Shown here piece by piece: positions 26,975-48,000 of a DNA stretch of 64,000 nucleotides. The notes beneath the pieces were generated by a model, which had not been told where the DNA came from, ran no database searches, and worked only from the letters and a program-made list of their open reading frames with translations. Made by a program: the position numbers and the translations under genes. Position 1 is the stretch's first letter; every line of letters starts with the position of its first letter. This DNA comes from Dysgonomonas sp. BGC7 (GTDB lineage Bacteria; Bacteroidota; Bacteroidia; Bacteroidales; Dysgonomonadaceae). Location of the stretch: assembly GCF_001261735.1 (NCBI RefSeq), contig NZ_CVRP01000010.1:186001-250000 (forward strand), written 5' to 3'.

Positions 26975-26988
26975 AATCTTTTTTGAGG

Positions 26989-28501: not shown

Positions 28502-28557
28502 CAAATTTAGTTTTGTATGCTAACCGATTGTTATACAATGCGACTGATTTGCTATAC
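28502..28557 (-). promoter_or_regulatory. GH30-esterase promoter with 27-bp mannan-regulon site
   Basis: Leftward -7 box TAAATTTG at 28502-28509, then 21 bp, then the site at 28531-28557, which on the + strand contains TTATACAAT (28531-28539), ACTGATT (28543-28549) and ATAC (28554-28557). The same site at the same spacing occurs at four other promoters of the region. Confidence 0.8.
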
Positions 28558-28570
28558 TATTATGAAGACT

Positions 28571-29437
28571 TTAATATTTAATCAACATTTGTTCAATCAA
28601 AGTACGGTATTCACTAGGAGTAGTGCCTTTTTTCTTCTTGAAAATCCGAATGAAGTTAGACAAATTATTAAATCCGCACAGAAAGCATACTTCTGCTATA
28701 GAATGAGTTGTTTCTGATAACATTTGGCAAGCTTTGGCTATTCTAAGGTTGATCACATAGTCAATAAATGTACAGCGAGTCTTCTTTTTAAAGAAGTGAC
28801 TAAATGCAGATTCAGACATATTTACCATTTCTGCTACTTCGCTAAGTTTTATCTGATTTTCATAATTTCTTTCAATATAATCACAAACCTTAGCTATACG
28901 ACGGCTTTTTGACACCCTTACTATTGCCTGCGAATCGTACTTATTGTCCATCAAGACACTTCTGTCTGAAATGGAAAGTTCATGTAAAATAGAGAAAAAT
29001 TCGAGTACAGTCTGGAAACCTTGCATCTTGGTCAGTCTTAATATACGCTCCTTCATCTCTACTCTGGTTTTCTCAGAAAAACATATACCTCGCTGAGCCT
29101 CATATAATAAGTCTTTTATTTGTACAAACAATCGCTTCTCTAATATAGGAAAATTAAGTAGCTTCTCCGAAAACTGAATAGTTACAACATGATTCCCGTC
29201 TACAATTTCACCTTGCCACGCATGCGGAATGTTAGGGCCTATCATCACAAGATCAAGTGTAGAAAAATTCTCTTCAGAATCTCCAACAATACGTTTACCA
29301 TAAGTATCCATTACCAGATTAATCTCATAATCGGAATGATGATGTACCGGATAATCGAATTTTGCAGACGGATGATTTAATACTATGAATAAATCATTAT
29401 CCGACAACGGCGTTATTTCCTTTTGAATCTCTCTCAT
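28571..29437 (-). CDS. AraC-family regulator, predicted activator of the mannan regulon
   Basis: A 288-residue protein. Residues about 10-100 form a cupin-type sugar sensor (VHHHSDYEINLVMDTYGKR, LVMIGPNIPHAWQGE). Residues about 185-285 carry the two AraC HTH motifs (LSEVAEMVNMSESAFSHFFKK and IAEVCFLCGFNNLSNFIRIFKKKKG). A TAAATTTG -7 box lies at 29472-29479. It lies between the GH30 and symporter promoters, each carrying a copy of the 27-bp site, which makes it the natural candidate for the protein that binds all of them. It has no export signal, so it must sense an intracellular sugar, consistent with a nearby symporter and GH130. Confidence 0.9.
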   Translation of the reverse strand: MREIQKEITPLSDNDLFIVLNHPSAKFDYPVHHHSDYEINLVMDTYGKRIVGDSEENFSTLDLVMIGPNIPHAWQGEIVDGNHVVTIQFSEKLLNFPILEKRLFVQIKDLLYEAQRGICFSEKTRVEMKERILRLTKMQGFQTVLEFFSILHELSISDRSVLMDNKYDSQAIVRVSKSRRIAKVCDYIERNYENQIKLSEVAEMVNMSESAFSHFFKKKTRCTFIDYVINLRIAKACQMLSETTHSIAEVCFLCGFNNLSNFIRIFKKKKGTTPSEYRTLIEQMLIKY

Positions 29438-29516
29438 AATGAAATTAATATTATCGTTTTTATTCTATATACAAATTTAGAAATAAAATAAAAAAAGCAA
29501 TAGTTAATTCAAAAAA

Positions 29517-29572
29517 GTACAACATTTCAGTCAGATTGTATAATCACTAATTCAACTTAACGCATATTTTTG
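29517..29572 (+). promoter_or_regulatory. symporter-GH130 promoter with 27-bp mannan-regulon site
   Basis: The site at 29517-29543 (reverse strand TTATACAAT ... ACTGA ... GTAC) ends 21 bp before the -7 box TATTTTTG at 29565-29572. Transcription would start near 29579, 18 nt before the ATG at 29597. This excludes a TTG start at 29570, which lies within the -7 box. Confidence 0.8.
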
Positions 29573-29596
29573 TATCATGAATATAAATTAATACTC

Positions 29597-31174
29597 ATGG
29601 AAAATTTTTCAATCAGTACAATCGACTTAGTTATAGTAGTCTTATACATTGTATTTATAATATGGTGGGGACTAAAAAACGGGAAAAGTTCAGACTCCCA
29701 ATCTTACTTTCTTGCCGGACGCTCCATGCCCTGGTGGATTGTCGGACTATCATTATTTGCGGCCAGTATCTCCAGCACTACTCTTATAGGACAGTCGGGA
29801 GACGCATATGATACAGGACTTGCTGTATTCAATTATAACCTGACAGGAATAGTAGTTATGGTGTTTTTTGCCGTGTTTCTTTTACCTTTATATATAAGAT
29901 CCAAGGTATTCACTATACCTGAATTTTTAGAAAAACGCTTCGACAAACGATCTAGGTTCTATTTTTCTGCTATTTGTATTATAGGGAATATATTTTTAGA
30001 TGCAGCCGGAGCATTATATGCAGCAGCTCTTATTATCAAACTAATATATCCGGCAGCAGATCTGCAACTAATCATAATCATTTTTGCAGCCATAGCAGCC
30101 TCATACACTATTCCCGGTGGACTATCGTCTGTAATAAAAACAGAATTGATTCAGGCTATTATATTAATTATAGGCTCAGTAATTCTAACAATCTTCTGTT
30201 TTCAGCAGGGAGGCGATTACTTTATCGACATTTATAAAAATGGAGATATATTAGCTAAACTGATACGGCCAATGGATGATCCTGCAACCCCATGGTTGGG
30301 TTTGATAGTCGGTATGCCTATTCTGGGAATCTATTTTTGGGCTAATAACCAGACAATGGTACAACGCGTATTAAGTGCTAAGACTGTAGATGAAGGACGA
30401 AAAGGAGTTATGCTGAACGGCTTCTTAACAATGGCAACTCTATTTATCATTGCCATTCCCGGACTTATAGCCCGAGGCCTATTCCCGGGATTAGACCGAC
30501 CCGATATGGTGTATCCCACAATGGTTATTAATCTGATGCCAATAGGTCTGTTAGCTATTATATTAGCTGCGTTGTTGTCTGCTCTCACATCGGCACTGAG
30601 TGCCATTCTGAATTCTACATCTACATTGTTTACAATGGACTTTTATTCTCATTTCAATAAAGATGCAGATTCCAAGAAATTGGTAAGAGTTGGTAAGATA
30701 GCTTCCTTAGTCATTATCATATTAGCTGCACTATGGGCACCTCAAATTGGTAAATTTGGTTCATTATTAAAGTATTATCAAGAGATGCTATCCTATATAT
30801 CACCTCCTATTGTAGCAGCTTTTCTTTTAGGTATATTCAGTAAAAGAATAAACGGAAAAGGAGCATTTATTGGTCTGATTAGCGGATTGGCTATTGCTAT
30901 ACTAATGCTATTCTTTAGACAAGAGATTTTTGGAAATATGCATTTTCTGCTTGTAGTTCCATTCTTACTTGGTACAAGTATGTTAATCATGTATCTCACA
31001 AGTCTTTTAGCTCCTGCTCCAACCTATGAGAAACTAGCCGACACCACATTCCGCAAAAACGATCTGATAACAGAGTTTAAAGATCTGAAAGGTGGGGCCT
31101 GGTACAAAAGCTATCTAGGATGGGCTATATTACTTTTAGGACTAAGTGGTCTCCTTTGGATTGTATTCAGCTAA
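29597..31174 (+). CDS. sodium:solute symporter (SSS family), predicted oligosaccharide/sugar importer
   Basis: A 525-residue inner membrane protein with about 13-14 helices, starting MENFSISTIDLVIVVLY. Family stretches: YFLAGRSMPWWIVGLSLFAA, SISSTTLIGQSGDAYDTGLA, IPEFLEKRFDKRSRFY, YTIPGGLSSVIKTEL, and FWANNQTMVQRVLSAKTVDE. These are the SGLT/SSS pattern for sodium-coupled sugar uptake. It is 37 bp upstream of GH130, so import and intracellular phosphorolysis are coupled, comparable to the Bacteroides mannobiose symporter-phosphorylase pair. Beta-mannobiose or a mannosyl-glucose disaccharide is the likely cargo (inference). Confidence 0.9.
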   Translation: MENFSISTIDLVIVVLYIVFIIWWGLKNGKSSDSQSYFLAGRSMPWWIVGLSLFAASISSTTLIGQSGDAYDTGLAVFNYNLTGIVVMVFFAVFLLPLYIRSKVFTIPEFLEKRFDKRSRFYFSAICIIGNIFLDAAGALYAAALIIKLIYPAADLQLIIIIFAAIAASYTIPGGLSSVIKTELIQAIILIIGSVILTIFCFQQGGDYFIDIYKNGDILAKLIRPMDDPATPWLGLIVGMPILGIYFWANNQTMVQRVLSAKTVDEGRKGVMLNGFLTMATLFIIAIPGLIARGLFPGLDRPDMVYPTMVINLMPIGLLAIILAALLSALTSALSAILNSTSTLFTMDFYSHFNKDADSKKLVRVGKIASLVIIILAALWAPQIGKFGSLLKYYQEMLSYISPPIVAAFLLGIFSKRINGKGAFIGLISGLAIAILMLFFRQEIFGNMHFLLVVPFLLGTSMLIMYLTSLLAPAPTYEKLADTTFRKNDLITEFKDLKGGAWYKSYLGWAILLLGLSGLLWIVFS

Positions 31175-31211
31175 TAATCAACTAGAAATAAATATAATAA
31201 AACTTGAGCTT

Positions 31212-32228
31212 ATGAAATTAGAAAAATTTCAGGGAAATCCTATTGTGTCTCCCAATGAGAAAAACGATTGGGAATCATTAGTAACATGCAATCCGGGGGT
31301 ATTCTACGATAATGGAATATTTTACATGCTTTATCGTGCCGCAGGAAATGATGACGAGCACGTTATACGGCTCGGATTGGCAACGAGTAAAGATGGTTTC
31401 CATTTCGAAAGAATATCAGATCAACCTGTTTTTGGTCCGGAAGCAAATAACTTTGACTCAGGTTGTGTGGAAGACCCACGTATTGTAAAATTCGACAGTG
31501 AATATTATGTAACATATGCCTACAGGCCTTTTCCTCCGGGACAATATTGGAAGTTTGCACATGATGTAGTGAAAGTTCCCGAGGTAGGAGCAGATGCTCC
31601 GGCAGCTATTGCTAAGAACTTAGGGAATACAGGATTGGCAGTTACTACCGATTTTAAAAACTTTCGTCGTTTGGGACGTTTAACGTCTCCTGTTCTGGAC
31701 GACAGAGATGTAATTTTATTCCCTGAAAAAATAAATGGTCAGTATGTACTTATGCATCGTCCCAAGCAATATATTGGAGAAAAGTACGGTGTTAAATATC
31801 CTTCTATCTGGCTTAAGTTCTCAGACGACTTGTTGAACTGGGAAGATAAAGAAAGCCACTTGTTATTGACAGGTATTGAAGGATCGTGGGAAGAGAAAAT
31901 CGGAGGAAGCACCCCTCCCCTAAAAACAGATTACGGTTGGTTGGTTATCTATCATGGTGTAGAAAACGGAGGCTTGGGATATTATAGAGCGGGTGCGATC
32001 CTTCTGGACTTAGAAAACCCATTAAAAATAATATCTAAAGCTCCGGATTTCATCCTCGAACCCGAATATGATTACGAAATAGAGGGGTATTACAAAGGGT
32101 GTGTATTTCCTACCGGAAATGTAATTATAAACGACACATTATATGTCTATTATGGTGGAGCGGATAAATATATAGGTGTTGCAACTTGCAATATCCACGA
32201 ACTTATCAAAAGTTTCAAAAAAGTATAA
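31212..32228 (+). CDS. GH130-family beta-mannoside phosphorylase-type enzyme
   Basis: A 338-residue cytoplasmic protein (no signal) forming a five-bladed propeller: FQGNPIVSP, CNPGVFYDNGIFYMLYRA, CVEDPRIVKF (Asp88 is the expected general acid), DDRDVILFPEKI, VLMHRPK, GGSTPPLKT, LVIYHGVENG and GYYKGCVFPTGN. These are the GH130 positions; the Arg, His and Lys residues that bind phosphate in the phosphorolytic members seem present, but subgroup assignment needs an alignment. It should cleave short beta-mannosides with phosphate to give mannose-1-phosphate. I place the start at 31212 (MKLEKF), avoiding overlap with the symporter. Its stop codon overlaps the weaker susC site. Confidence 0.88.
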   Translation: MKLEKFQGNPIVSPNEKNDWESLVTCNPGVFYDNGIFYMLYRAAGNDDEHVIRLGLATSKDGFHFERISDQPVFGPEANNFDSGCVEDPRIVKFDSEYYVTYAYRPFPPGQYWKFAHDVVKVPEVGADAPAAIAKNLGNTGLAVTTDFKNFRRLGRLTSPVLDDRDVILFPEKINGQYVLMHRPKQYIGEKYGVKYPSIWLKFSDDLLNWEDKESHLLLTGIEGSWEEKIGGSTPPLKTDYGWLVIYHGVENGGLGYYRAGAILLDLENPLKIISKAPDFILEPEYDYEIEGYYKGCVFPTGNVIINDTLYVYYGGADKYIGVATCNIHELIKSFKKV

Positions 32229-32278
32229 CAAATCAGCAGAAAAGGTAAATTTATATTACTCCTTTCCTTCTACTTTTG
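32223..32278 (+). promoter_or_regulatory. susC promoter with weaker copy of the 27-bp site
   Basis: A TACTTTTG -7 box lies at 32271-32278. Exactly 21 bp upstream, 32223-32249 matches the promoter-distal half of the GH30 site in 13 of 14 bases (GTATA-n-CAAATCAG) but poorly in the proximal half. The site covers the GH130 stop codon. It would give the susC operon its own promoter. Confidence 0.55.
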
Positions 32279-32321
32279 TTTTGTTAACAGTTCGTAAAAT
32301 AAATTCAATAAAGCTAATCAC

Positions 32322-35300
32322 ATGAAGAATCCTAAAGTCAAGAAAATGTCTATGGGTCTTTTATCCCTTAAAATGTTATTTGTATATTTTTTGTTAGGGA
32401 GTTTATGTGCAGTAAATGCTGCCGTAAATCAAGATCCTGTAAAAATAACGGTCTCCGGGACTGTTAGTGATACTAAAGGAGAACCACTTATCGGTGTATC
32501 TGTTGTGCTCAAAAATGCCTCTGTACATACAGGAACTATTACAGATATAGATGGTAAATATTCATTATCGTCTGTTCCTGCAAATGGAATTCTCGAATTT
32601 TCCAATGTAGGTATGGCCAAGCAGGAAGTTACCATTAATGGCAAAACTTCTATTAATGTAGTTATGAAAGATGATGCAGTTCTACTAGGTGAAACTGTTG
32701 TTATCGGCTATGGATCAGTAAAAAAAAGTGACTTAACAGGTTCTGTAGCAAGTATCAAAACGGATGTAATAAGTGATATTCCGGCCAATTCTGTCGAAGG
32801 TCTTTTGCAAGGACGTGCAGCAGGAGTTCAAGTTATCAATTCTTCGCAAGATCCAGGTTCCGGAGCTACTGTTCGCATCCGTGGAAACAGCTCGTTACGA
32901 GGATCGAATTCTCCTCTGATTGTGGTTGATGGATTTCCCTTAGGCGATGCCGGAGATCTTAAACAAATCAACACGGACGATATCGTTTCCATGGAGGTAT
33001 TGAAAGATGCTTCCGCTTCTGCTATCTATGGTTCACGAGGAGCAAACGGCGTTATTATAGTAACTACACGAAGAGCGAAGAAAGGAACAACAACGGTTTC
33101 CGTTAAGCAACAACTAACTTTTTCTGAGTTTTCCACTAAGCTCGATTTGTGGCGCGACCCTGTACTAATGGCTATGCTAAATAATGAAAGTCGTATCAAT
33201 GGCGGAGAGCAACCTCTCTATGTGGGTGCAAACAATTCTGCCGGAGTTTATTACCCTTCGATAGAAGAACTGCAAACTACATGGGCTACCAATACACGAT
33301 GGGATGATCTGGTATTCAGAAACACTCCAATGTCCAACAATACCACAATCTCTGTAGCTAGCTCGAATGAAAAGACAAGTTTCAATCTGAGTGCAAACTA
33401 CTATACTGATATGGGTATGTACAAAGACGATAATTACACTAAAGGTGGGTATAATCTGAATGTAGACCACAATATCTTCGACAATTTCAAGATACGTGCT
33501 TCAAATATTCTTTATTTAGGAAACAGAGACAACAATGGATGGACTGCCTATTGGAGAAATCCAATTTATCCTGTATATAATGAAGATGGTTCTTACTGGC
33601 AGGCAAACAATACAGACTACGATCATCCGATTGCTTTGCGTGAATTAAAAGAAAATAAGACAAAAATGCTAGATGTAATTTCATCAGCAGCATTGGAGTG
33701 GCAGATTCTTCCTGTACTTAAATTGACCAGTCAGATGAATTATAAATATGGTAAATCGACTAACGATCAGTATTTCCCTAAAAAATACACACAGGCTGGA
33801 AATGAAAATGGAGGAAGGGGTATTATTGGTAATACAGAAAGCCAGAACTTTGTCTCAGAAACATTTGCCAATTATTCCCAGACATTTAATGAGAAACACG
33901 AAATAGGCATCATGGCCGGTCATTCTTACGAATGGTATCAATATAGAGACTCGTACCTCACAGCCAGTGGTTTTGTAAACGAAGCCTTAGGTAATGAAAA
34001 TATGGGAGCCGGAGAGCAAGCGAAGAATTTATTATCAAACGGATTCTCAAAAAGTCAGCTACTCTCTTACATGGGACGTTTAAACTATACTTTTGACAAT
34101 AGATACTTAGCTACTTTGACTTTCCGCGCCGATGGTTCATCTAAATTTGGGAAAAACAACAAATGGGCTTACTTCCCTTCAGGAGCATTAAGTTGGAAAG
34201 CCCATGAAGAAGAATTTGTAAAAAACTGGAAGGTATTTGACGAATTGAAGTTTCGTTTAAGTTATGGCATTTCGGGAAATCAGGGAATTAGCCCTTATCA
34301 AACATTAAGCCGCTATGGAACAACTAAATATTACAACGAAGGACAATGGGTTACTGCTATAGGCCCGGGCTATGTGTCAGGCAATACCGGACAAGACGGA
34401 ATCTATAAAGTATGGAGTGGTATACCCAATCCTGACTTGAAATGGGAAACAACCTCGCAGTGGAATCTGGGTGTCGATATGGCTTTTTTCAATAGAAGAT
34501 TGACAACTACTCTCGATGTATATAACAAGGAAACTTCAGACCTTCTACGCGAACGAAACTTAGCTTTATCGTCAGGATATGACCGTATGTGGGTGAATGA
34601 TGGGAAAATACGTAACCGTGGGTTTGAAGCAACATTTAATGGTATAATTATAGATACTAAAGACTGGGGACTTGATGCTACTTTTATTTTCTCTATGAAT
34701 CGTAATAAAGTTTTGGATCTGGGCAGCAGTCTCGAGTCGGGATTAATTACAGATCCACGTACAGGTATGGAGTATGAAGTTATAGGCAACCTTAGAGAAC
34801 AATATAGAGCTTACACCAATATTCTGGCAATAGGACAGCCTATCAATGTTTTCTATGGATATAAAACAAATGGTATTATACAGAGTTTGCAAGAAGGGCT
34901 TGACGCCGGACTTACAGGAGATTATGCACAACCGGGAGAATTCAAATATGTAAACATTTACGATGGGGACGGAACTGTGGGTGTTATCAATGAAAATGAC
35001 AGATGTATTATCGGCGATCCTAATCCCGATTTCACAACCAGTTTAAATCTAGCCTTCCGCTGGAAAAATCTTGATGCAAGTATATTCCTTAATGGTGTAT
35101 TTGGCAACGATGTACTGAATACGAAAATGTTTGGAGATCCACACAATGCCGCTTTTCGTTGGACACCTGATAACCCGACCAATAAATATCCAAGATTGAG
35201 AAGTAATCGTCAAACTATGTTATCTGATTACTGGATCGAAGATGGTTCTTTTGTACGCATTCAGAACCTTTCTGTAGGGTATACATTTAAGCTACCGAAA

Positions 35301-35465
35301 CAAAAAGTCTTTGCCGAAAGAGTTCGTTTATATATGAATGCTTCCAATCTATATACATTTTCCAAATTCGATGGTTACGATCCTGAAGTTGATCAAACAG
35401 GAATATATACAGGAGGTTATCCGCGCCTGAGAAAATGGACTGTAGGTTTTGATATAACATTCTAA
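32322..35465 (+). CDS. SusC/RagA family TonB-dependent transporter (mannan PUL)
   Basis: A 1047-residue outer membrane transporter. A signal peptide ends near CAVNAA; a CarboxypepD-like domain follows (VSGTVSDTKGEPLIGVSVVLKN), then a TonB-box-like segment (ETVVIGYGSVKKSD), a plug (EGLLQGRAAGVQVINSSQDPG, LIVVDGFPLG) and a barrel ending VGFDITF. It forms the import channel for mannan oligosaccharides with SusD, encoded 12 bp downstream. It begins the operon susC-susD-glycan-binding protein-GH-A-GH-A-GH26, with its own candidate promoter at 32223-32278. Confidence 0.95.
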   Translation: MKNPKVKKMSMGLLSLKMLFVYFLLGSLCAVNAAVNQDPVKITVSGTVSDTKGEPLIGVSVVLKNASVHTGTITDIDGKYSLSSVPANGILEFSNVGMAKQEVTINGKTSINVVMKDDAVLLGETVVIGYGSVKKSDLTGSVASIKTDVISDIPANSVEGLLQGRAAGVQVINSSQDPGSGATVRIRGNSSLRGSNSPLIVVDGFPLGDAGDLKQINTDDIVSMEVLKDASASAIYGSRGANGVIIVTTRRAKKGTTTVSVKQQLTFSEFSTKLDLWRDPVLMAMLNNESRINGGEQPLYVGANNSAGVYYPSIEELQTTWATNTRWDDLVFRNTPMSNNTTISVASSNEKTSFNLSANYYTDMGMYKDDNYTKGGYNLNVDHNIFDNFKIRASNILYLGNRDNNGWTAYWRNPIYPVYNEDGSYWQANNTDYDHPIALRELKENKTKMLDVISSAALEWQILPVLKLTSQMNYKYGKSTNDQYFPKKYTQAGNENGGRGIIGNTESQNFVSETFANYSQTFNEKHEIGIMAGHSYEWYQYRDSYLTASGFVNEALGNENMGAGEQAKNLLSNGFSKSQLLSYMGRLNYTFDNRYLATLTFRADGSSKFGKNNKWAYFPSGALSWKAHEEEFVKNWKVFDELKFRLSYGISGNQGISPYQTLSRYGTTKYYNEGQWVTAIGPGYVSGNTGQDGIYKVWSGIPNPDLKWETTSQWNLGVDMAFFNRRLTTTLDVYNKETSDLLRERNLALSSGYDRMWVNDGKIRNRGFEATFNGIIIDTKDWGLDATFIFSMNRNKVLDLGSSLESGLITDPRTGMEYEVIGNLREQYRAYTNILAIGQPINVFYGYKTNGIIQSLQEGLDAGLTGDYAQPGEFKYVNIYDGDGTVGVINENDRCIIGDPNPDFTTSLNLAFRWKNLDASIFLNGVFGNDVLNTKMFGDPHNAAFRWTPDNPTNKYPRLRSNRQTMLSDYWIEDGSFVRIQNLSVGYTFKLPKQKVFAERVRLYMNASNLYTFSKFDGYDPEVDQTGIYTGGYPRLRKWTVGFDITF

Positions 35466-35477
35466 AAACTAATAATC

Positions 35478-37016: not shown

Positions 37017-37032
37017 TTAAATTTTAGATATC

Positions 37033-37995: not shown

Positions 37996-38006
37996 TATGT
38001 AGAAAC

Positions 38007-38036
38007 GGGTAGTTGGGGCTCTGCTTCCAGCTACCC
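38007..38036 (+). other. intra-operon hairpin before the first GH-A gene
   Basis: GGGTAGTTGG (38007-38016) pairs with CCAGCTACCC (38027-38036), one G-U pair, 10-nt loop, no T-run. It separates the binding-protein genes from the glycosidase genes and may protect or tune the upstream susCD message. Confidence 0.55.
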
Positions 38037-38050
38037 ATAATATATAAACA

Positions 38051-39511: not shown

Positions 39512-39519
39512 TTAATAAT

Positions 39520-41004
39520 ATGAATATAAGAAATATAATAGGAACTATTTTACTGGGTATGCTAGCATTTTCTTGCTCTACGCCAAAGGATGAGCTGCAA
39601 ATAACGGTAAGTTCAGACATTATCAATGCAGGATATATCGGTAACGGTGTCGAATGGGATCCATATGATGAAGCAGAAGCATGGGGTTCTTCTATCTCGG
39701 AAGCAGATTGGCAAAAGCTATTCAAACGCCTCGACTTTATGCGTATGGGCTATGTACGATGCATGATAAATAGTCCGTTCCGCTATTATGATGCCAAAAC
39801 GGGGAAGTACGATAAAACAAGGAATATAGAATCTATATCTCGTGTATTGCAATATTGTACAGACAATAATATTACCGTTATGTATGGCGAATACAATCCT
39901 CCTACATGGAATATGAAAGCCGATCAGAAATGGGTGGATATGTCTGTGGATTACCTTAATTATCTGGTAAACGATCTGGGATTCTCTTGTGTCAAATATT
40001 TTGTGATATTTAATGAGCCGGATGGTGACTGGGCATCTACAAATGGTGATTATGAGCTTTGGAAATCTATGTTGCTTCGCTTCAATGAGAAGATAAAAGA
40101 ATATCCTGGATTAAGTGAAAAAGTGAAATTTGCTGCTCCTGATGTCGTTGTTGATTATAAAAACCCGGCATCAGCTTACGATGCAGCCGGATGGGTTAAA
40201 CAAACAGCTAATGATCTGGATTCAATAATAGGGTTGTATGATCTTCATGCCTATCCCGGGCAGCACGAAGTACGTTCGGGACAATATGCAGATATTTTGG
40301 CACGACACAAAGAGTTTGTTCCTAAAGACAAAAAGGTTGTACTGGGAGAAGCCGGTTATAAATACTGGAGAGAGGCTGATTCGCTATTGATGAAAGAGTA
40401 TAATCGCCGAACTGAAGGACATCCTTTTACCAAAGGAAGCGATTCTAATATGCTGGTTTACGATTATTTCTATGGTTTAGATATGCCTCTTCTCTGTATG
40501 GAGGTGATGAACGCAGGATACTCAGGCATTGCTGCATGGATGCTCGACGATGCAATGCATAGCAGTGGTGATTCGGGTAAGACAGAAGACATCAAGTTGT
40601 GGGGGATGTGGAATATCTTGGGAGAAGAAGTGTTTAACGACCCTACACAGGAAGAAATACGCCCTTGGTATTACACATGGGCACTTATGTGCCGTTACTT
40701 TCCTTCAGGAACGAATATACTGAAAACCACAATAGATCGTACTCAAGGCGTTTACATGGCTACAGGTGAACACAACGGTAATTATGTTATAGCTGCTGTA
40801 AACATTGGCGATACTGATAGAAATCTGAATATTTCTTTTCCTACAGAATTAAGTAATGTTTCGAAATATGTGTATGAGGAAAATAATATGAAGAAAAATC
40901 AAGATGGACATCCACTTCCTGTAGAAACAGGGTTGAATATTTCTAAACAGTATAAGATAGCCCTTAAGGCTCAAAGCTTTATTTTATTAACGAATATGGA
41001 TTAA
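39520..41004 (+). CDS. clan GH-A glycoside hydrolase lipoprotein, family uncertain (paralogue 2)
   Basis: A 494-residue lipoprotein (AFSC, Cys19) with the same layout as the upstream protein: YIGNGVEWDPYD, FKRLDFMRMGYVR, VIFNEPDGDWAST (acid/base Glu166), LYDLHAYPG, KVVLGEAGYKYW (nucleophile Glu277), AAWMLDDAMHSSGD, RPWYYTWALMCRYFPSG. Local differences around the predicted subsites (MYGEYNPPTW here against MFGDWGWSLL in paralogue 1) suggest that the pair have diverged in specificity. It arose by tandem duplication and is co-transcribed with GH26 11 bp downstream. The family remains to be assigned. Confidence 0.78.
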   Translation: MNIRNIIGTILLGMLAFSCSTPKDELQITVSSDIINAGYIGNGVEWDPYDEAEAWGSSISEADWQKLFKRLDFMRMGYVRCMINSPFRYYDAKTGKYDKTRNIESISRVLQYCTDNNITVMYGEYNPPTWNMKADQKWVDMSVDYLNYLVNDLGFSCVKYFVIFNEPDGDWASTNGDYELWKSMLLRFNEKIKEYPGLSEKVKFAAPDVVVDYKNPASAYDAAGWVKQTANDLDSIIGLYDLHAYPGQHEVRSGQYADILARHKEFVPKDKKVVLGEAGYKYWREADSLLMKEYNRRTEGHPFTKGSDSNMLVYDYFYGLDMPLLCMEVMNAGYSGIAAWMLDDAMHSSGDSGKTEDIKLWGMWNILGEEVFNDPTQEEIRPWYYTWALMCRYFPSGTNILKTTIDRTQGVYMATGEHNGNYVIAAVNIGDTDRNLNISFPTELSNVSKYVYEENNMKKNQDGHPLPVETGLNISKQYKIALKAQSFILLTNMD

Positions 41005-41014
41005 ACAAAATATC

Positions 41015-42199
41015 ATGAAAACAAAATATAATTATTTATTTGCAATCTTAGCTTTAATACTATCCGGTTGCACAGATGTAGATGATGTATCGGCACTTTA
41101 TCCCGAGATAAAAGATATTAAAGAATTGTCTATTGTGGATAAGAATGCCACAACCGAAACAAAAGCATTGTATTCAAATCTGTGGGCAATACAGTCTAAA
41201 GGATTTATGTTTGGTCATCACGACGACCTCTGGTATGGTCGGAAATGGTATAATGAAGCAGGACGGTCAGACACAAAAGATGTCTGTGGTGATTATCCGG
41301 CAGTATTCAGTTTCGACGTAGCTGAGATCATGGACAACCGTTACAATAGTGAAGCAAATATAATACGCAAAAGAGTAGCTATCGAAGCCTACAACAGAGG
41401 CGAGGTTCTTACAGCATGTGCCCATTTGAATAATCCAAAGACAGGAGGAGACTCGTGGGACAATTCCAGCAATCAGGTAGTAAAGGAAATTTTGACAGAG
41501 GGAAGTGCTACAAATATTAAGTTCAAATTGTGGCTCGACCGATTGGCAGATTTTGCTCTAAATCTAAAGGGTGCCGATGGCAAGAATATTCCAATCATTT
41601 TCCGTCCGTTCCACGAACATACACAAAGTTGGTCGTGGTGGGGCAGCTCATGCACTACACAAAACGAATTCATTGCGCTATGGAAATTTACAGTAAACTA
41701 TCTTCGTGATACAAAAGGTGTTCACAACCTGATATATGCCATATCGCCACAAATTGATTCTGTTCAGGGGCGCGACAGTTTCCTATTCAGATGGCCGGGG
41801 AATGATTATGTAGACTTTCTTGGAATGGATGCTTATCACGGCCTCAATCCAAATACATTTACAACAAATATCTATACTTTATCACGCCTTTCGAAAGAAT
41901 TAAGAAAGCCATGTGGAGTAACCGAAACAGGAGTAGAAGGCATACAACGTAGTGGCGTGCCGGAAAAAAATTACTGGACACAACAAATACTTACTCCTGC
42001 TACAGGCCAATTTATTAGTATGATAGTATTGTGGCGTAATGCATACGATCCTAGTGAAGGCGGAAATCATTTCTATTCTGTATTTAAAGGACATGCTTCG
42101 GAGAAGAATTTTATTAAGATGTACGAAAGCCCTGTTTCGTTCTTCTCTAAAGATTTGCCAAAGATGTACCAAATGGCAGAAGGGTTGACAATAAAATAA
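41015..42199 (+). CDS. GH26 endo-beta-1,4-mannanase lipoprotein
   Basis: A 394-residue lipoprotein (LSGC, Cys19). GH26 signatures are intact: FMFGHHDDLWYGR (about 64-76), FSFDVAEI, IIFRPFHEHTQSWSWWG with acid/base Glu201, FLGMDAYHG, and CGVTETGVEG with nucleophile Glu304. It hydrolyses beta-1,4-mannan at the surface or in the periplasm to mannobiose and short oligosaccharides, which the symporter and GH130 then process. Length is normal for a single-domain GH26. It is the last glycosidase of the susC operon before a hairpin and the esterase gene. Confidence 0.94.
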   Translation: MKTKYNYLFAILALILSGCTDVDDVSALYPEIKDIKELSIVDKNATTETKALYSNLWAIQSKGFMFGHHDDLWYGRKWYNEAGRSDTKDVCGDYPAVFSFDVAEIMDNRYNSEANIIRKRVAIEAYNRGEVLTACAHLNNPKTGGDSWDNSSNQVVKEILTEGSATNIKFKLWLDRLADFALNLKGADGKNIPIIFRPFHEHTQSWSWWGSSCTTQNEFIALWKFTVNYLRDTKGVHNLIYAISPQIDSVQGRDSFLFRWPGNDYVDFLGMDAYHGLNPNTFTTNIYTLSRLSKELRKPCGVTETGVEGIQRSGVPEKNYWTQQILTPATGQFISMIVLWRNAYDPSEGGNHFYSVFKGHASEKNFIKMYESPVSFFSKDLPKMYQMAEGLTIK

Positions 42200-42220
42200 T
42201 TCGGAAGAATATATATAGAA

Positions 42221-42255
42221 AAGGTTTGCATAACAAAAAAAGTTATGCAAACTTT
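42221..42255 (+). other. 14-bp hairpin with A7 loop between GH26 and esterase genes
   Basis: AAGGTTTGCATAAC (42221-42234) pairs with GTTATGCAAACTTT (42242-42255), one G-U pair, loop of seven A. No T-run follows on the + strand, so it is more likely an mRNA-stabilising or partial termination structure than a full terminator. It covers an upstream in-frame ATG at 42245 and so argues for the esterase start at 42278. Confidence 0.65.
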
Positions 42256-42277
42256 GTCATTTAGCATATCAAAATTT

Positions 42278-43093: not shown

Positions 43094-43112
43094 GAAGAGA
43101 GAATCAAAAAAT

Positions 43113-43154
43113 AAAAGTCCGTCTCGTTTTTTCTTTTCGAGGCGGATTTTTTTT
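43113..43154. terminator. bidirectional terminator between esterase and GH2 genes
   Basis: TCCGTCTCG (43118-43126) pairs with CGAGGCGGA (43138-43146), extended by A and T runs on both sides. It lies between convergent genes (esterase on +, GH2 on -). Confidence 0.87.
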
Positions 43155-43175
43155 ATATTCTATACTATGAGAAAG

Positions 43176-45767
43176 CTACTGTAAGCAATCTCGGAGAGAT
43201 ACAATAGTAAACTGCTTTTCGAAATCAGCGAATGATAATTCTGATTGTACATTTACAACTTTCTTCTTATTTGGCAACAAATCGAAATAATTGTCGCCAA
43301 AGAAATTATTAATTCCATCAATAGACAAATATACAGCTCTGGCAAATTTATCGCTCTGTAAAGTAATTTCAAAGCCACTCTCTATTGTTCTGATACTGTA
43401 TATTATGTTTGCTTGAGGGAGATTTATTTGTTTCTGATTTAATAGAAAGTAATTATTAGAGTATTGCTTCCCTTTTTCATCAGTAAAGCTTACGGTGACT
43501 ACTACATTACTTTTCTCTTCATTTAAGATTAGCTTATTTATTGATTCAGAATAAAGTCTTGTACTTGCATTAGCAGGTATGCTTGAGTTGTTAGTTATTT
43601 CTGAAACAATTTTTCCATCTAATGTCAAAACAGAAACATTTAGTTTTCCCCTCGTACTCGTCAAGCGATCAGAAACAGTAAATATGTCAACTCTATCGCC
43701 ATTAACAATCGGTGATATTAATATATCCTTAAATGCCTCACGTGTAAAATAGTGCTGAGCTTTCCAACGTCCATAATAATCGCGGCTAGCCCACGATGCC
43801 ACAGGCCAGCAATCGTTATGTTGCCAAAACAGTGATCCCATACAATACCCCATATCGCGGCGATGAGCTTCCATTGCTATCTTCATAGCATCACCTTGCA
43901 AAACCTGACTCAGATAAAGAAACGATTTGAAGTCTTTAGGTTTTCCATATTCATTTGTAAGACATTTCTCGATCGTTTTATTGGCTTCTGCCCCACCCCT
44001 TTGGTGCGACATCATCACTTCAGAGGTTATATTCCAATCCTTTTCATCAGGTGCATATAATAGAATGGTAGACCATTCGGGAAACGACTGAAATCCATAT
44101 TCACTAAAGTAACGGCTTTTTTCATCATTATAAGTACTTATAGGCAATCCTTTCTGCCATGTACTCCAATAGTGCATATCCCCGTCGGTGTGATCTCTTC
44201 GTCCATCTATATCGGTAAATGGAGAAGATGGTGTATAGCATGCCATCGGATCATACTCTTTTACCACCTCGGGCAAAACAACAAAATACTGATCGTAAAA
44301 CTGTTTCCATATTTTATCGGCTATTTTAGGGTCTTTTGCAGTATAGTCTCGCTTCCAGCCCCAAATAGCCCATGCATCGAGACACTCATTGTTTCCACAC
44401 CAGATAGCAATAGAGGGATGATTCCTCAATCTTTCTACATTATCTATAGCTTCTTGTCGGATATTCTCCAACAATTCTCCCTCTGCCGGATATAAACTAC
44501 ATGCATACATGAAATCTTGCCATACCATGATTCCTGACTCGTCACATAGTTGGTAGAAATAATCGTCTTCATATATTCCACCTCCCCATACACGAAGCAT
44601 ATTCATGTTAGCATCTACTGCATCTTGGATAGTTTTCCTATAAATATCTTTAGTAACACGAGGAAGGAACATATCGCACGGAATATAATTCGCACCTTTA
44701 GAAAATACAGGTATACCATTCAGTTCGAAGTAAAAGCTTTTTCCAAATTTATCCGGTTGCCTTACCAGTTTTACTGAACGTATTCCTATTCTCTCTTTCT
44801 TGTTATCAATGATACTATTATCAGCAGTTACTTTGGCATTAAACGTATAAAGATGAGGCTCTCCCAATCCGTTTGACCACCATAATTTAGGATTCTTTAT
44901 GGAGAAATTCACCTGTACTTTATTTACTCCTTTTTTTATATCAACAATAGTTGATGCCAATCGGTTACCGGATTGCTCATCAGTTATTTCTACTTTTACT
45001 CCGACAAGATCTTTATTTCCAACAATTTCAAGTACTGTTTCAATGTCAGCATTTCTTGCAGATACATTTTTTTGTATATAATGAACATTATCTATACGAA
45101 GCCCGTCCCATGCTTCCACGAACAGAGGACGCCAAATGCCTGAGGTAACTAACCTTGGCCCCCAGTCCCAGCCATAGTGATAACCTGCTTTTCGGGCAAA
45201 TACACTTAACCTTCTATCGAAGACACCGCCATTTTCAGATTGATCGTTTATTGCTTCATACTGAAAAGGCAAAGCTTCCCATTTAGGCGTATCTACTTTG
45301 ATAGGCGAATGGAAATATATTCTAAGATGGTTATCATTTTGTTTGATTATTTTTTTCACATCTACCCTCCACTCTCTGAACATGTTGTTTGCCTCTAGTA
45401 TTTTATTGCCGTTCAGATATACATCTGCATAAGTATCCAACCCCTTGAAATATAAATCGAGATTCTCTTTATTGAAAGAAACTTTATCCAGATCGAAGGT
45501 TGTTTCATAAATCCAGTCCTCTTTATCAACCCATTGAGCACCTCTTTCATTCAGTCTGAAAAATGGATCTTCCAATATGCCATTATTCATTAGATCAGTA
45601 TGTACTACTCCGGGAACAGTTGCCGGGTACCAATTAGTTAATCGGGCTTGCTTAAATTTCCATCCCGATTTTATTTCTGTAAAAACAGGAGAAGCACTGA
45701 TACGACTCGAACTGAATATTGTACACATTATTAATATTATTACTTTTATTCTACTTCCTATATTCAT
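43176..45767 (-). CDS. GH2 beta-mannosidase, exported
   Basis: An 863-residue protein with a signal peptide (cleavage near RISAS, about residue 26). It has the GH2 sugar-binding domain (about 30-215), a beta-sandwich, and the barrel with NMNMLRVWGGGIYEDDYFY, IAIWCGNNECLDAW (acid/base Glu461), and SEYGFQSFPEW (nucleophile Glu556). The W-C-G-N-N-E pattern is the beta-mannosidase type rather than the beta-galactosidase type. It removes terminal mannose from beta-mannosides. It is monocistronic, but its promoter carries the regulon site at 45851-45877, placing it under the same control as the susC side of the locus. Confidence 0.93.
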   Translation of the reverse strand: MNIGSRIKVIILIMCTIFSSSRISASPVFTEIKSGWKFKQARLTNWYPATVPGVVHTDLMNNGILEDPFFRLNERGAQWVDKEDWIYETTFDLDKVSFNKENLDLYFKGLDTYADVYLNGNKILEANNMFREWRVDVKKIIKQNDNHLRIYFHSPIKVDTPKWEALPFQYEAINDQSENGGVFDRRLSVFARKAGYHYGWDWGPRLVTSGIWRPLFVEAWDGLRIDNVHYIQKNVSARNADIETVLEIVGNKDLVGVKVEITDEQSGNRLASTIVDIKKGVNKVQVNFSIKNPKLWWSNGLGEPHLYTFNAKVTADNSIIDNKKERIGIRSVKLVRQPDKFGKSFYFELNGIPVFSKGANYIPCDMFLPRVTKDIYRKTIQDAVDANMNMLRVWGGGIYEDDYFYQLCDESGIMVWQDFMYACSLYPAEGELLENIRQEAIDNVERLRNHPSIAIWCGNNECLDAWAIWGWKRDYTAKDPKIADKIWKQFYDQYFVVLPEVVKEYDPMACYTPSSPFTDIDGRRDHTDGDMHYWSTWQKGLPISTYNDEKSRYFSEYGFQSFPEWSTILLYAPDEKDWNITSEVMMSHQRGGAEANKTIEKCLTNEYGKPKDFKSFLYLSQVLQGDAMKIAMEAHRRDMGYCMGSLFWQHNDCWPVASWASRDYYGRWKAQHYFTREAFKDILISPIVNGDRVDIFTVSDRLTSTRGKLNVSVLTLDGKIVSEITNNSSIPANASTRLYSESINKLILNEEKSNVVVTVSFTDEKGKQYSNNYFLLNQKQINLPQANIIYSIRTIESGFEITLQSDKFARAVYLSIDGINNFFGDNYFDLLPNKKKVVNVQSELSFADFEKQFTIVSLRDCLQ

Positions 45768-45821
45768 TCGTATATATTTTAATTGGTTGCATCATATATT
45801 GATTTCTCGATAGTAATAACA

Positions 45822-45877
45822 CAAAACTATTTATAACTAACGATGAAAAGTTATACAATACAATTAAAGGATTATAC
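45822..45877 (-). promoter_or_regulatory. GH2 promoter with 27-bp mannan-regulon site
   Basis: Leftward -7 box TAGTTTTG at 45822-45829, 21-bp spacer, then the site at 45851-45877 with TTATACAAT at the promoter-proximal end and ATAC at the distal end. The middle part (AATTAAAGGATT) is the most divergent of the four good copies. Confidence 0.72.
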
Positions 45878-45905
45878 TATTTTGAATATAGCCTCATAAA
45901 GATAA

Positions 45906-45935
45906 AAAGCAAAGCCGATATATCAGCTTTGCTTT
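45906..45935 (-). terminator. terminator after GH5-like gene
   Basis: AAAGCAAAGC (45906-45915) pairs perfectly with GCTTTGCTTT (45926-45935); leftward it is followed by a T-run. It lies 24 bp after the GH5-like stop. Confidence 0.85.
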
Positions 45936-45959
45936 CATTTTTTCAGTAAAAAAATTAGA

Positions 45960-47849
45960 TTATCTTACATAAAACTTTTTTGAAACCGTATCGCCACCTC
46001 TTACTATTTTCACCGCTATGATCTTATTATTTCCAACATTGTGAAGATCAAATTCAGAATATTGATTTCTGATTTTCTGAGTAGATATTATACGGCTTGT
46101 AGAAACATCTACGATTTGTATAGTTGCATTATTATAATTATTCTCAATACTCACTCTAAGAGTATATTCATTGACGATAGAAATATCAATATCACTTACG
46201 GTTGCACTTTCTTTCTCCAACTGATTATCTGTTATTGAAAAATCTGTAGCCATAAAGGTTTGTCTTTTCCCATTCGGATATACTAATTGAGGATAATTTT
46301 GATAAAAATTATTTGTAGCAGGTGTTATTCCTGCAAAAGTTCCGTATCCGTCATTTTCCCAAGGGCTTTTCCAAGCACATACGCCACTGTAACCGTTCCA
46401 GTACGCATTCAGGTAAGCATTAGCCAAAGTCATATTCCAACCCGATTCGTTTACGTTATATCCGGGTGTTTCGCCAATAACTACAGGCTTATAACCATCG
46501 TCCATCCATTCTCCGATAGTAGTATTGAAAAAGGCTCCTGACGATTGCCACTGATACCAGTGTGGTGAATAAAAATCGAGATACGCATCTGCGTCATTGT
46601 ATCTTGCTCTTAATGAGGTTTCGCTGTAGTTATTACCCGCATATGTATCAGCCCATGTCCAGCTGCTATATTTACTGCTATTACAGATTATCCACATTGA
46701 TCCAGAGGTAACAGGTTTATTTGTATGCTTGTGTATATAAGAAGCGCAAATAGCTATAAACCTCATAACATTGTTACGAGATAAATTTCCACAGTTACCA
46801 TCTCTCCACATATGTTCTATCTCGTTACATATATCATACCCCATAATATATGGCTCGTTATTATATCTTTTCACAAATGGAACTAGAAAATATTCACAAT
46901 ACCATTTAGTCTTATTCTCGTCATTAATTATTTGCCGAAACTGGCTCCAACGAGTAGCGTTGTAATTATTGATTACCATATCGAAAGACCAGAAAGTAGG
47001 CATAATGTATATTTGTCTCTCTTTTGATAATGCAACAAGTTTATCCATATCAGTCCAAAATTGATTCGTAACACCTGTTACCACTCCATCTCCATTCAAA
47101 GAAGGACTCGTATTTCCCCCTCCATGTATCCATATTCGTGCAAGGTTAATATTATTTTGTTCATATCTAGTAAATTCCTGCTGCCACCACTCCTGATTAT
47201 AGTTTCTACCTAAAAAATCTAATCGGTAATCATTATTCCATTGCCATGCGGTATTTATCCCATTAAAAAATATTTGTTTATTATAAGCATAAAATTTATT
47301 ACCACTAATCGTAATTGTCGGACTGCTGGAATTGACATTTTTATCAACAAGGGCAATTTCATCAATATAGAATGAAAAAGCCGATTTATATTCATAAGCA
47401 GCAGGCACTAATGTAATTCTATTAAATTGCCCATCCTGAAGCTTATCCATAGGTAATATAACTTCTTGCCATTGTCCATTCGCATTATATTTAGGATATG
47501 TCTCCCAATCGGAAGATGAAGCTCCTGTTAATGTATTTTCAAGTTTATAAACAAAAGAGAATGTTCCCATATTACTAGATTTAACTCTCAGTTTAATACC
47601 CGAATAGACCGATTTTGTAAATGGATTGTTAAGATTAAAATAAACTCCATCCCCTTCATTGTTAGCAGGAACAGAAATCAAACCGGTTTTGCCAAGGCTA
47701 CCGTCTGTTGAAGACTGAACATTGATAGATACATTTCCCCACGAATTATAATTAGAGGAGATGTAATTGAAATTACATACAATTTTATTCTGTGAATAGC
47801 CATTGATTGTAATTAACAATAATACAAAATAAAGTATTAATCTTTTCAT
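45960..47849 (-). CDS. multidomain GH5-like endo-mannanase with N-terminal CBM and sorting-type C-terminus
   Basis: A 629-residue secreted protein with a type I signal (NGYSQ, about residue 20) and no lipobox. Residues about 25-170 are a beta-sandwich CBM-like domain (GIKLRVKSSNMGTFSFVYK, FYIDEIALVDK). Residues about 178-540 are a GH5-type barrel: FFNGINTAWQWNN, LARIWIHGGG, GYDICNEIEHMW (acid/base Glu343), FYSPHWYQW, PVVIGETPGYN (nucleophile Glu460). The last 80 residues form a beta domain ending KKFYVR that resembles a type IX secretion sorting domain. It carries the regulon site, so mannan is the expected substrate. The barrel resembles GH5 mannanases; the subfamily is unassigned. Confidence 0.83.
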   Translation of the reverse strand: MKRLILYFVLLLITINGYSQNKIVCNFNYISSNYNSWGNVSINVQSSTDGSLGKTGLISVPANNEGDGVYFNLNNPFTKSVYSGIKLRVKSSNMGTFSFVYKLENTLTGASSSDWETYPKYNANGQWQEVILPMDKLQDGQFNRITLVPAAYEYKSAFSFYIDEIALVDKNVNSSSPTITISGNKFYAYNKQIFFNGINTAWQWNNDYRLDFLGRNYNQEWWQQEFTRYEQNNINLARIWIHGGGNTSPSLNGDGVVTGVTNQFWTDMDKLVALSKERQIYIMPTFWSFDMVINNYNATRWSQFRQIINDENKTKWYCEYFLVPFVKRYNNEPYIMGYDICNEIEHMWRDGNCGNLSRNNVMRFIAICASYIHKHTNKPVTSGSMWIICNSSKYSSWTWADTYAGNNYSETSLRARYNDADAYLDFYSPHWYQWQSSGAFFNTTIGEWMDDGYKPVVIGETPGYNVNESGWNMTLANAYLNAYWNGYSGVCAWKSPWENDGYGTFAGITPATNNFYQNYPQLVYPNGKRQTFMATDFSITDNQLEKESATVSDIDISIVNEYTLRVSIENNYNNATIQIVDVSTSRIISTQKIRNQYSEFDLHNVGNNKIIAVKIVRGGDTVSKKFYVR

Positions 47850-47877
47850 GGTTATATTTGTTAAAATTAGTATAAAT

Positions 47878-47933
47878 CAAAACTAAACATACTTATTGAC
47901 AACTAATTATACAATATAACTGATTGTTGATAC
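47878..47933 (-). promoter_or_regulatory. GH5-like gene promoter with 27-bp mannan-regulon site
   Basis: Leftward -7 box TAGTTTTG at 47878-47885, 21-bp spacer, site at 47907-47933 with TTATACAAT, ACTGATT and ATAC. Box and spacing are identical to those of the GH2 promoter, and the leader is about 22 nt. Confidence 0.8.
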
Positions 47934-48000
47934 TTTTCTGAATAATTAAAATATTCTATTATATTATTTTGAAATCAGAGTTTGATACTTGCGATTAAGT

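What the first reader, a model, noticed from the sequence alone, without database searches (positions are those of the whole stretch)
28502..47933. A 27-bp site at exactly 21 bp from the -7 box defines a mannan regulon of the AraC protein
Sites at 28531-28557 (GH30-esterase), 29517-29543 (symporter-GH130), 45851-45877 (GH2 mannosidase) and 47907-47933 (GH5-like) share TTATACAAT at the promoter-proximal end and (A/T/G)TAC at the distal end; three of them also share ACTGA in the middle. Each ends exactly 21 bp before a perfect TAnnTTTG box. Identical spacing at four promoters on both strands over 19 kb is hard to explain by chance. The AraC gene at 28571-29437 lies between two of the sites. The site covers the -33 region, as expected for a class II-type activator. 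This joins GH2 and GH5, which are not in the susC operon, to the same system.
Basis: partly seen in the sequence, partly recalled or inferred. Interest (0 to 1): 0.9.

Follow-up and report, generated by a model that had tools for sequence, protein, structure and literature searches.

The report
Mannan regulon operators of an AraC regulator
Five promoters of a mannan-degrading gene cluster in a Dysgonomonas-type gut bacterium carry the same docking site at a fixed distance from the transcription signal, most likely for the AraC-type switch protein encoded among them.

Summary
The four sites and the 21-bp spacing are as described and not chance; with up to 3 mismatches the full pattern occurs nowhere else in the 4.3-Mb genome. 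Two corrections. (1) A fifth site lies before susC (32214-32249, +), same 21-bp gap, with a degenerate promoter-proximal half. (2) The site is about 36 bp, not 27: nine further upstream bases (TTCAnAAnA) are among its best-conserved. Its GTATAA ends repeat directly at 21 bp, as expected for AraC-type dimers; the full half-sites repeat only weakly. The site tracks the AraC gene: in Dysgonomonas, 5 of 5 genomes with a >=91% AraC ortholog (own genome included) against 0 of 20 others. An exact scan of 393 Bacteroidales genomes hit 6, all with a >=50% AraC homolog; two of these, in other families, were not used to define the pattern. In 11 of 21 AraC-homolog loci a site stands exactly 21 bp before a perfect -7 box in the gap upstream of araC; four show none. 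Some PUL-linked paralogs (9 of 23 loci) show a related repeat at the same gap. Best reading: a stand-alone AraC-family activator over the -33 region switches on five units of a beta-mannan PUL. Binding, activation and ligand are untested.

The parts
28531..28566 (-).
28502..28509 (-). -7 box TAAATTTG, 21 bp from operator A
29508..29543 (+).
29565..29572 (+). -7 box TATTTTTG, 21 bp from operator B
32214..32249 (+).
   Evidence: orthologs
32271..32278 (+). -7 box TACTTTTG, 21 bp from operator S
45851..45886 (-).
45822..45829 (-). -7 box TAGTTTTG, 21 bp from operator C
47907..47942 (-).
47878..47885 (-). -7 box TAGTTTTG, 21 bp from operator D
28571..29437 (-). AraC-family regulator, 288 aa: N-terminal beta-rich domain and C-terminal double HTH; the presumed binder
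   Evidence: co-occurrence
29472..29479 (-). Candidate -7 box (TAAATTTG) of the araC gene itself, with TTG 18 bp and TTTG 30 bp upstream; no operator at the 21-bp gap
26989..28470 (-). GH30 enzyme (start inferred at the ATG at 28470, since the -7 box lies at 28502-28509)
   Evidence: start by inspection
25274..26995 (-). Carboxylesterase-family protein downstream of GH30
29598..31174 (+). Sodium:solute symporter (SSF) (start inferred at the ATG at 29598)
   Evidence: start by inspection
31146..32228 (+). GH130 phosphorylase
32322..35465 (+). SusC-like TonB-dependent transporter
35478..37016 (+). SusD-like protein
39520..41004 (+). Weakly GH5-like protein of the susC unit (below Pfam's cut-off; no PDB relative at E <= 0.01)
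41015..42199 (+). GH26 enzyme (family that includes beta-mannanases)
43176..45767 (-). GH2 beta-mannosidase
45960..47849 (-). GH5-type protein similar to beta-1,4-mannanases (PDB sequence matches; no Pfam match)

Best explanation
The AraC-family protein at 28571-29437 is a stand-alone, probably cytoplasmic, activator of a beta-mannan utilisation locus. It binds, most likely as a dimer, an operator of about 36 bp, TTCAnAAnA-GTAYAAYnnnTYAGTnnnATTGTATAA, in which GTATAA recurs directly at 21 bp, so that both protomers lie on one DNA face. The proximal end lies 21 bp before the TAnnTTTG -7 box and takes the place of the -33 element, where the activator can touch RNA polymerase (class II type). With an inducer, probably a manno-oligosaccharide or its breakdown product in the cytoplasm, five promoters are switched on together: GH30-esterase, symporter-GH130, susCD and the following genes, GH2, and GH5. 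Shown here: the sites, their fixed geometry, exclusivity in this genome, conservation, and co-occurrence with the AraC gene. Inferred: that this protein binds them, dimer binding, activation, the class II contact, and the ligand.
For: Exclusivity: the distal core plus -7 box at the fixed gap, 1 mismatch allowed, gives exactly 5 matches in the genome, all exact and all in this locus; control 0. Genus: the 27-bp pattern is in 5 of 5 genomes with a >=91% AraC ortholog and in 0 of 20 others (Fisher 2e-5, 9e-5 without the own genome). Family: the same window-derived pattern (up to 3 mismatches) hits 9 of 101 genomes, 8 of them with the AraC homolog or its fragment; leaving out the own genome and G033, 6 of 13 against 1 of 86 (Fisher 1e-5). 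Order: exact hits in 6 of 393 genomes, all 6 with a >=50% AraC homolog, control 0; the two in other families were unknown to me beforehand, one site directly beside the AraC gene, the other about 24 kb away on the same contig. Repeat: within the 27 bp the best direct shift is 21 (six overlapping columns), 0 of 2000 column permutations as good. Conservation window to D. mossii over five promoters: site 120/135, box 37/40, spacer 75/105, downstream 74/105. In 11 of 21 AraC-homolog loci a site stands 21 bp before a perfect box in the gap upstream of araC; G025 and G092 add the extended core there with 1 mismatch. No TTTG within 40 bp upstream of the five boxes.
Against: No binding, expression or transcription-start data exist for this locus. 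Four of the 21 AraC-homolog loci show no clear site (L073 and L074 at 72-74%, L078 at 53%, the second G019 homolog at 48%), and G070/G077 have a 22-bp gap; two of the 11 counted sites score weakly (UW62 3.3 bits, G005 4.3 bits) and were accepted by eye on GTAYAA plus the gap. The repeat is strong only for the six end bases: over the full 36 bp, shift 21 is matched by 7 of 1000 permutations for five sites and 54 of 1000 for four, and a weak inverted alignment (35-54 of 1000) cannot be excluded. The susC operator has a poor proximal half in the relatives seen too. Two exact core hits in the family (G017, G030) lie in genomes whose best AraC homolog is only 41%. The family count with the extended core (10 of 15 against 2 of 86) is partly circular, since most of those genomes helped define the core. 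The closest genomes are near relatives; the 40 bp upstream are also well conserved (149/200).
Confidence: 0.85

Rival explanations
1. The AraC protein binds these operators but acts as a repressor (or as both repressor and activator) by covering the -33 region until an inducer releases it.
For: The operator lies over the -33 position, where a bound protein could block polymerase. AraC of E. coli is a dual regulator (recalled).
Against: No TTTG lies within 40 bp upstream of the five -7 boxes, so the promoters look activator-dependent; the candidate araC promoter has a TTG 18 bp upstream. The rigid 21-bp gap suggests a contact with polymerase, which a repressor would not need (inference).
Confidence: 0.09
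2. Another DNA-binding protein, such as a hybrid two-component system elsewhere in the genome, binds these operators, and the neighbouring AraC gene is a passenger.
For: HTCS regulators have AraC-type domains and direct-repeat motifs on average 21 bp apart (PMC3878776); a marine mannan PUL has both an HTCS and an AraC-type regulator (PMC9860051).
Against: The site tracks this AraC gene across genomes. No HTCS appears among the 19 window proteins scanned with Pfam. In G010 a 75% GH30 ortholog next to a different AraC (39%) has no such site at up to 2 core mismatches, although G010 also holds a 55% homolog on another, 3-kb contig.
Confidence: 0.05
3. The sites are copies of a dispersed repeat or chance AT-rich resemblance without regulatory meaning.
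For: AT-rich region (63% A+T); the word TTGTATAA alone occurs 14 times in the window.
Against: Shuffles, genome-wide searches, leave-one-out scans, the fixed gap, and unalike flanks between sites.
Confidence: 0.01

Closest known systems
HTCS (hybrid two-component) regulons of Bacteroides thetaiotaomicron, including HTCS_Man (PMC3878776; passages read)
   Same: AraC-type DNA-binding domain; direct-repeat motif with an average of 21 bp between tandem sites; targets include PUL operons with SusC/SusD; mannan among the substrates
   Different: HTCSs are membrane sensor kinases with a periplasmic sensor; this is a 288-aa stand-alone AraC protein. Their HTCS_Man regulons concern alpha-mannan; this locus looks like beta-mannan. 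The passages read state no fixed distance to the -7 box.
Enterobacterial AraC and class II AraC-family activators (recalled)
   Same: N-terminal ligand domain plus C-terminal double HTH; two half-sites in direct repeat at 21 bp; proximal half-site over the -35 region
   Different: Bacteroidota promoter (TAnnTTTG) instead of sigma-70; other half-site sequence; repeat here clear only for the GTATAA ends; five promoters of one PUL
AraC-type regulator of the Muricauda beta-mannan PUL (PMC9860051; passages read)
   Same: AraC-type factor in a beta-mannan PUL with GH26, GH130, symporter and SusC/D
   Different: The passages read give no operator or regulon there, and that PUL also has an HTCS
RhaR (BT3768), AraC-family rhamnose regulator of B. 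thetaiotaomicron (named in a passage of PMC3878776)
   Same: AraC-family regulator in Bacteroides listed apart from the HTCSs
   Different: Monosaccharide regulator; its motif was not compared here

Membership tests
AraC/XylS family regulator | C-terminal double helix-turn-helix DNA-binding domain | tested here: met
   Pfam HTH_18 9e-24 and HTH_AraC 3e-16; similar to AraC 2k9s, XylR and Rns chains; helices in the predicted model
AraC/XylS family regulator | N-terminal cupin-like ligand domain | tested here: inconclusive
   No Pfam match to the N-terminal part; the model shows strands between residues 17 and 89; the fold search was never accepted because the machine was busy
AraC-type operator | Two direct-repeat half-sites about 21 bp apart | tested here: inconclusive
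   Met for the six-base GTATAA ends (0 of 2000 permutations); over the full 36 bp weak (7 of 1000 for five sites, 54 of 1000 for four)
Class II activator-dependent promoter | Operator overlaps the -35/-33 element at a fixed distance from the -10/-7 box | tested here: met
   21 bp at 5 of 5 promoters in the window and in 11 of 21 AraC-homolog loci; no TTTG within 40 bp upstream of the five boxes
Class II activator-dependent promoter | Transcription depends on the activator | not testable with these tools
   Needs deletion and RNA data
HTCS | Periplasmic sensor, kinase and receiver domains in the same chain | tested here: not met
   288 aa, only the HTH matched
Regulon in the comparative-genomics sense | Site conserved upstream of orthologous genes in genomes carrying the orthologous regulator | tested here: met
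beta-mannan PUL | SusC/D pair with beta-mannan enzymes | tested here: met
   SusC/D; GH26; GH5-type mannanase relatives; GH2 beta-mannosidase; GH130. By sequence only

The most novel reading that the evidence does not exclude
A general promoter grammar for stand-alone AraC regulators of PULs in Bacteroidales: a roughly 36-bp operator whose GTAT anchors, 21 bp apart, are shared by paralogs of about 39-43% identity and may be read by the near-constant second HTH; whose 5' box (TTCA in this group, GATA in a sister group) changes together with the first HTH; and which ends 21 bp from the -7 box, mostly before susC. Regulator-to-operon maps could then be read from sequence.
Probability: 0.45. Interest if true: 0.65.

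Novelty: new member of a known kind. Interest (0 to 1): 0.5.

Why it matters
The PUL regulation described in the papers seen here concerns mainly membrane sensors (HTCS, SusR-like) and ECF sigma factors. This is a compact, well-bounded example of a stand-alone AraC regulator that appears to hold five scattered units of one PUL together, with an operator precise enough to find targets by search. If the geometry holds for its paralogs, operators and target operons of many unstudied PUL regulators become predictable and directly testable.

Tried and rejected
Repeat-family or chance explanation: rejected by shuffles, genome-wide searches and unalike flanks. A sixth target elsewhere in the genome: the distal half-site plus -7 box with up to 2 mismatches gave 22 matches: 5 in this locus at 0-1 mismatch, one elsewhere at 1 mismatch (C4:39665) and 16 at 2 mismatches, against 11 reversed-control matches, so nothing beyond the five is claimed. 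The fifth exact TTGTATAA-N21-TAnnTTTG match (C10:412015) lies inside a 546-aa frame of the opposite strand and lacks the rest of the motif. An inverted-repeat reading is not excluded: it is weaker than the direct repeat of the GTATAA ends but, over 36 bp, about as good as the direct reading. One search misplaced the susC site by one base and is superseded; one search used a pattern with one N too many and is superseded. With the spacer included (48 columns), a shift of 41 scores higher per column than 21 for the window sites. Homologs without a clear site: L073, L074, L078 and the 48% homolog of G019. Literature: seven term searches listed no title or abstract start describing this operator; some listings were cut, passages of only five papers were read, and most subscription papers are not held.
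Full report
WHAT WAS CLAIMED AND CHECKED. The four 27-bp sites and their boxes are present at the stated coordinates. In transcription orientation they read GTATAGCAAATCAGTCGCATTGTATAA (A), GTACAACATTTCAGTCAGATTGTATAA (B), GTATAATCCTTTAATTGTATTGTATAA (C) and GTATCAACAATCAGTTATATTGTATAA (D), each followed by 21 bp and TAnnTTTG. The window has 80 TAnnTTTG boxes and 14 TTGTATAA words on both strands. Over all 8-mers and gaps of 5-35 bp, no other combination occurs more than twice except the overlapping ATTGTATA at 22; 0 of 200 dinucleotide shuffles reach 4. Leave-one-out matrices put the held-out site directly behind the training sites in 4 of 4 cases; the margin is smallest for site C (18.3 bits against 13.6 for the next).

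WHOLE GENOME. The window lies in a 4.32-Mb assembly of 38 contigs. The full pattern with up to 3 mismatches matches only the four sites, control 0. G015, placed in the same genus too, corresponds to a MAG record titled Prevotella sp.

A FIFTH SITE. In D. mossii the matrix found an extra site between GH130 and susC, again 21 bp before TACTTTTG. The same place in the window carries GTATAACAAATCAGCAGAAAAGGTAAA (32223-32249), 21 bp before TACTTTTG at 32271-32278. Its distal half matches a half-site pattern with zero mismatches in a genome-wide search; its proximal half is degenerate. It overlaps the GH130 stop codon.

THE SITE IS LONGER. These sites had been chosen by the 27-bp core, mostly together with the gap, not by these bases. 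TTCANAANAGTAY-N44-TANNTTTG with up to 1 mismatch gives exactly five matches in the genome, all exact, all in this locus, control 0. The operator is therefore about 36 bp.

ARCHITECTURE. Within the 27 bp the best direct self-match is a shift of 21 bp (GTATAA at 1-6 against 22-27); 0 of 2000 column permutations reach it, for the five window sites and for a set of 14 that adds nine relatives. Over the full 36 bp the 21-bp repeat is weak: 7 of 1000 permutations reach it for the five sites, 54 of 1000 for the four, and inverted alignments do about as well. The direct-repeat reading thus rests on the GTATAA ends, on the clearer repeat of the paralogs, and on what is known of AraC-type domains. Conserved blocks at about -8, +2, +12 and +23 are roughly one helical turn apart (by inspection), as two protomers with two HTHs each would need. 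No TTTG lies within 40 bp upstream of the five -7 boxes; the proximal GTATAA stands where it would be (the expected place is my estimate from the -7 and -33 centres). The promoter elements (TAnnTTTG at -7, TTTG near -33) are taken from PMC7366714 (passages).

CO-OCCURRENCE. In 25 Dysgonomonas genomes the 27-bp pattern plus box (up to 3 mismatches) is found in the 5 with a >=91% AraC ortholog, the own genome included, and in none of the other 20. In 101 family genomes it is found in 9; 7 of these have an AraC homolog, G033 has a fragment at a contig end, and G042 has none above 41%. The extended core, exact, is found in 10 of 15 AraC-carrying genomes (G033 counted by its fragment) and in 2 of 86 others; this count is partly circular, because sites of seven of the ten genomes had helped to define the core and those of G012 are near copies of such sites, while G025 and G092 had no part in it. 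Of its 27 exact matches 25 lie at AraC-linked or orthologous mannan genes and 2 (G017, G030) do not. With one mismatch allowed there are 74 matches in 43 of 101 genomes against 27 in the reversed control (my count of the tables). In 393 genomes of the order a slightly longer exact pattern gave 18 matches in 6 genomes, control 0: three Dysgonomonas with five each, G092 (AraC 71%), G397 and G208. The last two belong to other families and were not known to me beforehand. In G397 the site lies between a 51% AraC homolog and a susC. In G208 it lies about 24 kb from a 56% homolog on the same contig; that homolog stands divergent to GH130 and the symporter and has a second site (one mismatch, 21-bp gap) in that divergent gap. 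How many of the 393 genomes carry an AraC homolog was not counted.

GAP UPSTREAM OF ARAC IN HOMOLOGS. Of 21 loci examined, 11 have a site exactly 21 bp before a perfect -7 box; nine score 12.5 bits or more, two (UW62 3.3, G005 4.3) were accepted by eye. G025 and G092 score below zero with the 27-bp matrix but have the extended core there with one mismatch. The 80% homolog has the site (7.1 bits) with an imperfect box; G070 and G077 have 22 bp; the G010 contig ends too early; four show nothing clear (L073, L074, L078, and the 48% homolog of G019).

LOSS WITH THE GENE. G006 and G015 have no GH30 beside araC in the fetched stretches and no operator A; G015 is only 55% complete and the G006 contig ends soon after GH26, so GH2 and GH5 cannot be judged there. 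In G010 a 75% GH30 ortholog sits beside a different AraC (39%) and has no such operator at up to 2 core mismatches; G010 also holds a 55% AraC homolog on a separate 3-kb contig.

PARALOGS. In 23 loci (410,482 bases; AraC homologs mostly of 35-43%, with L066, L160, L162 and L164 included), GTAT-N17-GTAT with CA upstream (up to 1 mismatch in all) before TAnnTTTG gave 10 matches at a gap of 21, in 9 of the 23 loci, and none at the other 18 gaps from 12 to 30; 8 of the 10 stand directly before a susC. The rule was set after seeing some of these sites, and 14 of 23 loci have no match. Without the CA condition and with both period and gap varied in 21 of the loci, the 21/21 cell has 14 matches against a mean of 0.52 over 380 cells, next best 6; in the window it has 4, next best 3. 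The runner-up cells 16/26 and 28/14 share the same first half-site, 48 bp before the box (arithmetic). The sister motif reads about GATAAnAnA-GTATTA...GATAATAnAGTATTT. In an alignment of 29 proteins the second HTH is nearly constant (NNLSNFIRIFKKKKG or NNLSNFNRIFKKKKG in many) while the first differs (SESAFSHFFKK against TEVAFSRFIKQ). That the second HTH reads GTAT and the first reads the 5' box is my inference.

GENES. GH26, a GH5-type protein most similar to beta-1,4-mannanases, a GH2 beta-mannosidase, GH30, esterases, SSF symporter and GH130 make a beta-mannan PUL by sequence. The regulator has a double HTH and strands in its N-terminal part in the predicted model (mean pLDDT 83); the fold search could not be run.

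MECHANISM AND STATUS. Shown: sites, spacing, exclusivity, conservation, co-occurrence. Inferred: binding by this AraC protein, dimer binding, activation, class II contact, cytoplasmic manno-oligosaccharide as inducer. A repressor role is less likely because the promoters lack a -33 TTTG and the gap is rigid. The weak proximal half before susC, seen also in D. mossii, G006 and G012, may set a different strength or order of induction; untested.

KNOWN OR NEW. Direct-repeat motifs with an average distance of 21 bp are known for HTCS regulators of B. thetaiotaomicron (PMC3878776, passages), and an AraC-type factor is known in a marine beta-mannan PUL (PMC9860051, passages). I saw no description of this operator in the listings. 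It is a new regulon of a known kind; the shared geometry across paralogs is the more novel part.

Confidence went from 0.87 to 0.85 because the repeat over the full site proved weak, with 0.01 moved to the repressor rival; the novel reading went from 0.5 to 0.45 because only 9 of 23 paralog loci show it.

Noticed in passing
31146-32228: The GH130 protein is closer by sequence to beta-1,2-(oligo)mannan phosphorylases of the PDB (9fj8 1e-61, 7fip 2e-51) than to a beta-1,4-mannooligosaccharide phosphorylase (5ayd 9e-26), although its neighbours look like beta-1,4-mannan enzymes; its specificity may be unusual.
   Followed up: no
38051-39511 and 39520-41004: Two neighbouring proteins of the susC unit resemble each other (38-39% in cross-matches with D. 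mossii copies); the first has no Pfam match, the second only a weak GH5-like one and no PDB match.
   Followed up: partly
29437-29543: Operator B lies close behind the candidate araC promoter. The distance from the araC -7 box (29472-29479) to the 27-bp site is 37 bp in the window and four close relatives and 38-39 bp in some distant ones, but not in others; operator B may also serve autoregulation.
   Followed up: partly
L145:1563-1627 and L145:4250-4314 (also L147, L148, L149, L154, L155, L156, L067): A sister operator (about GATAAnAnA-GTATTA ... GATAATAnAGTATTT) with the same 21-bp period and 21-bp gap stands mostly before susC next to AraC paralogs of about 39-43% identity.
   Followed up: partly
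L160:49-113 and L160:1296-1360; L161:9448-9512: A third variant (ATCAAAAnA-GTATCA...) at the same 21-bp gap, near susC homologs; also matched in G025, G028 and G092.
   Followed up: no
L183:18016 (- strand): An exact operator match in G208 stands before a 333-aa frame (L183:16708-17709) whose function was not determined by a family search; the AraC homolog is about 24 kb away.
   Followed up: no
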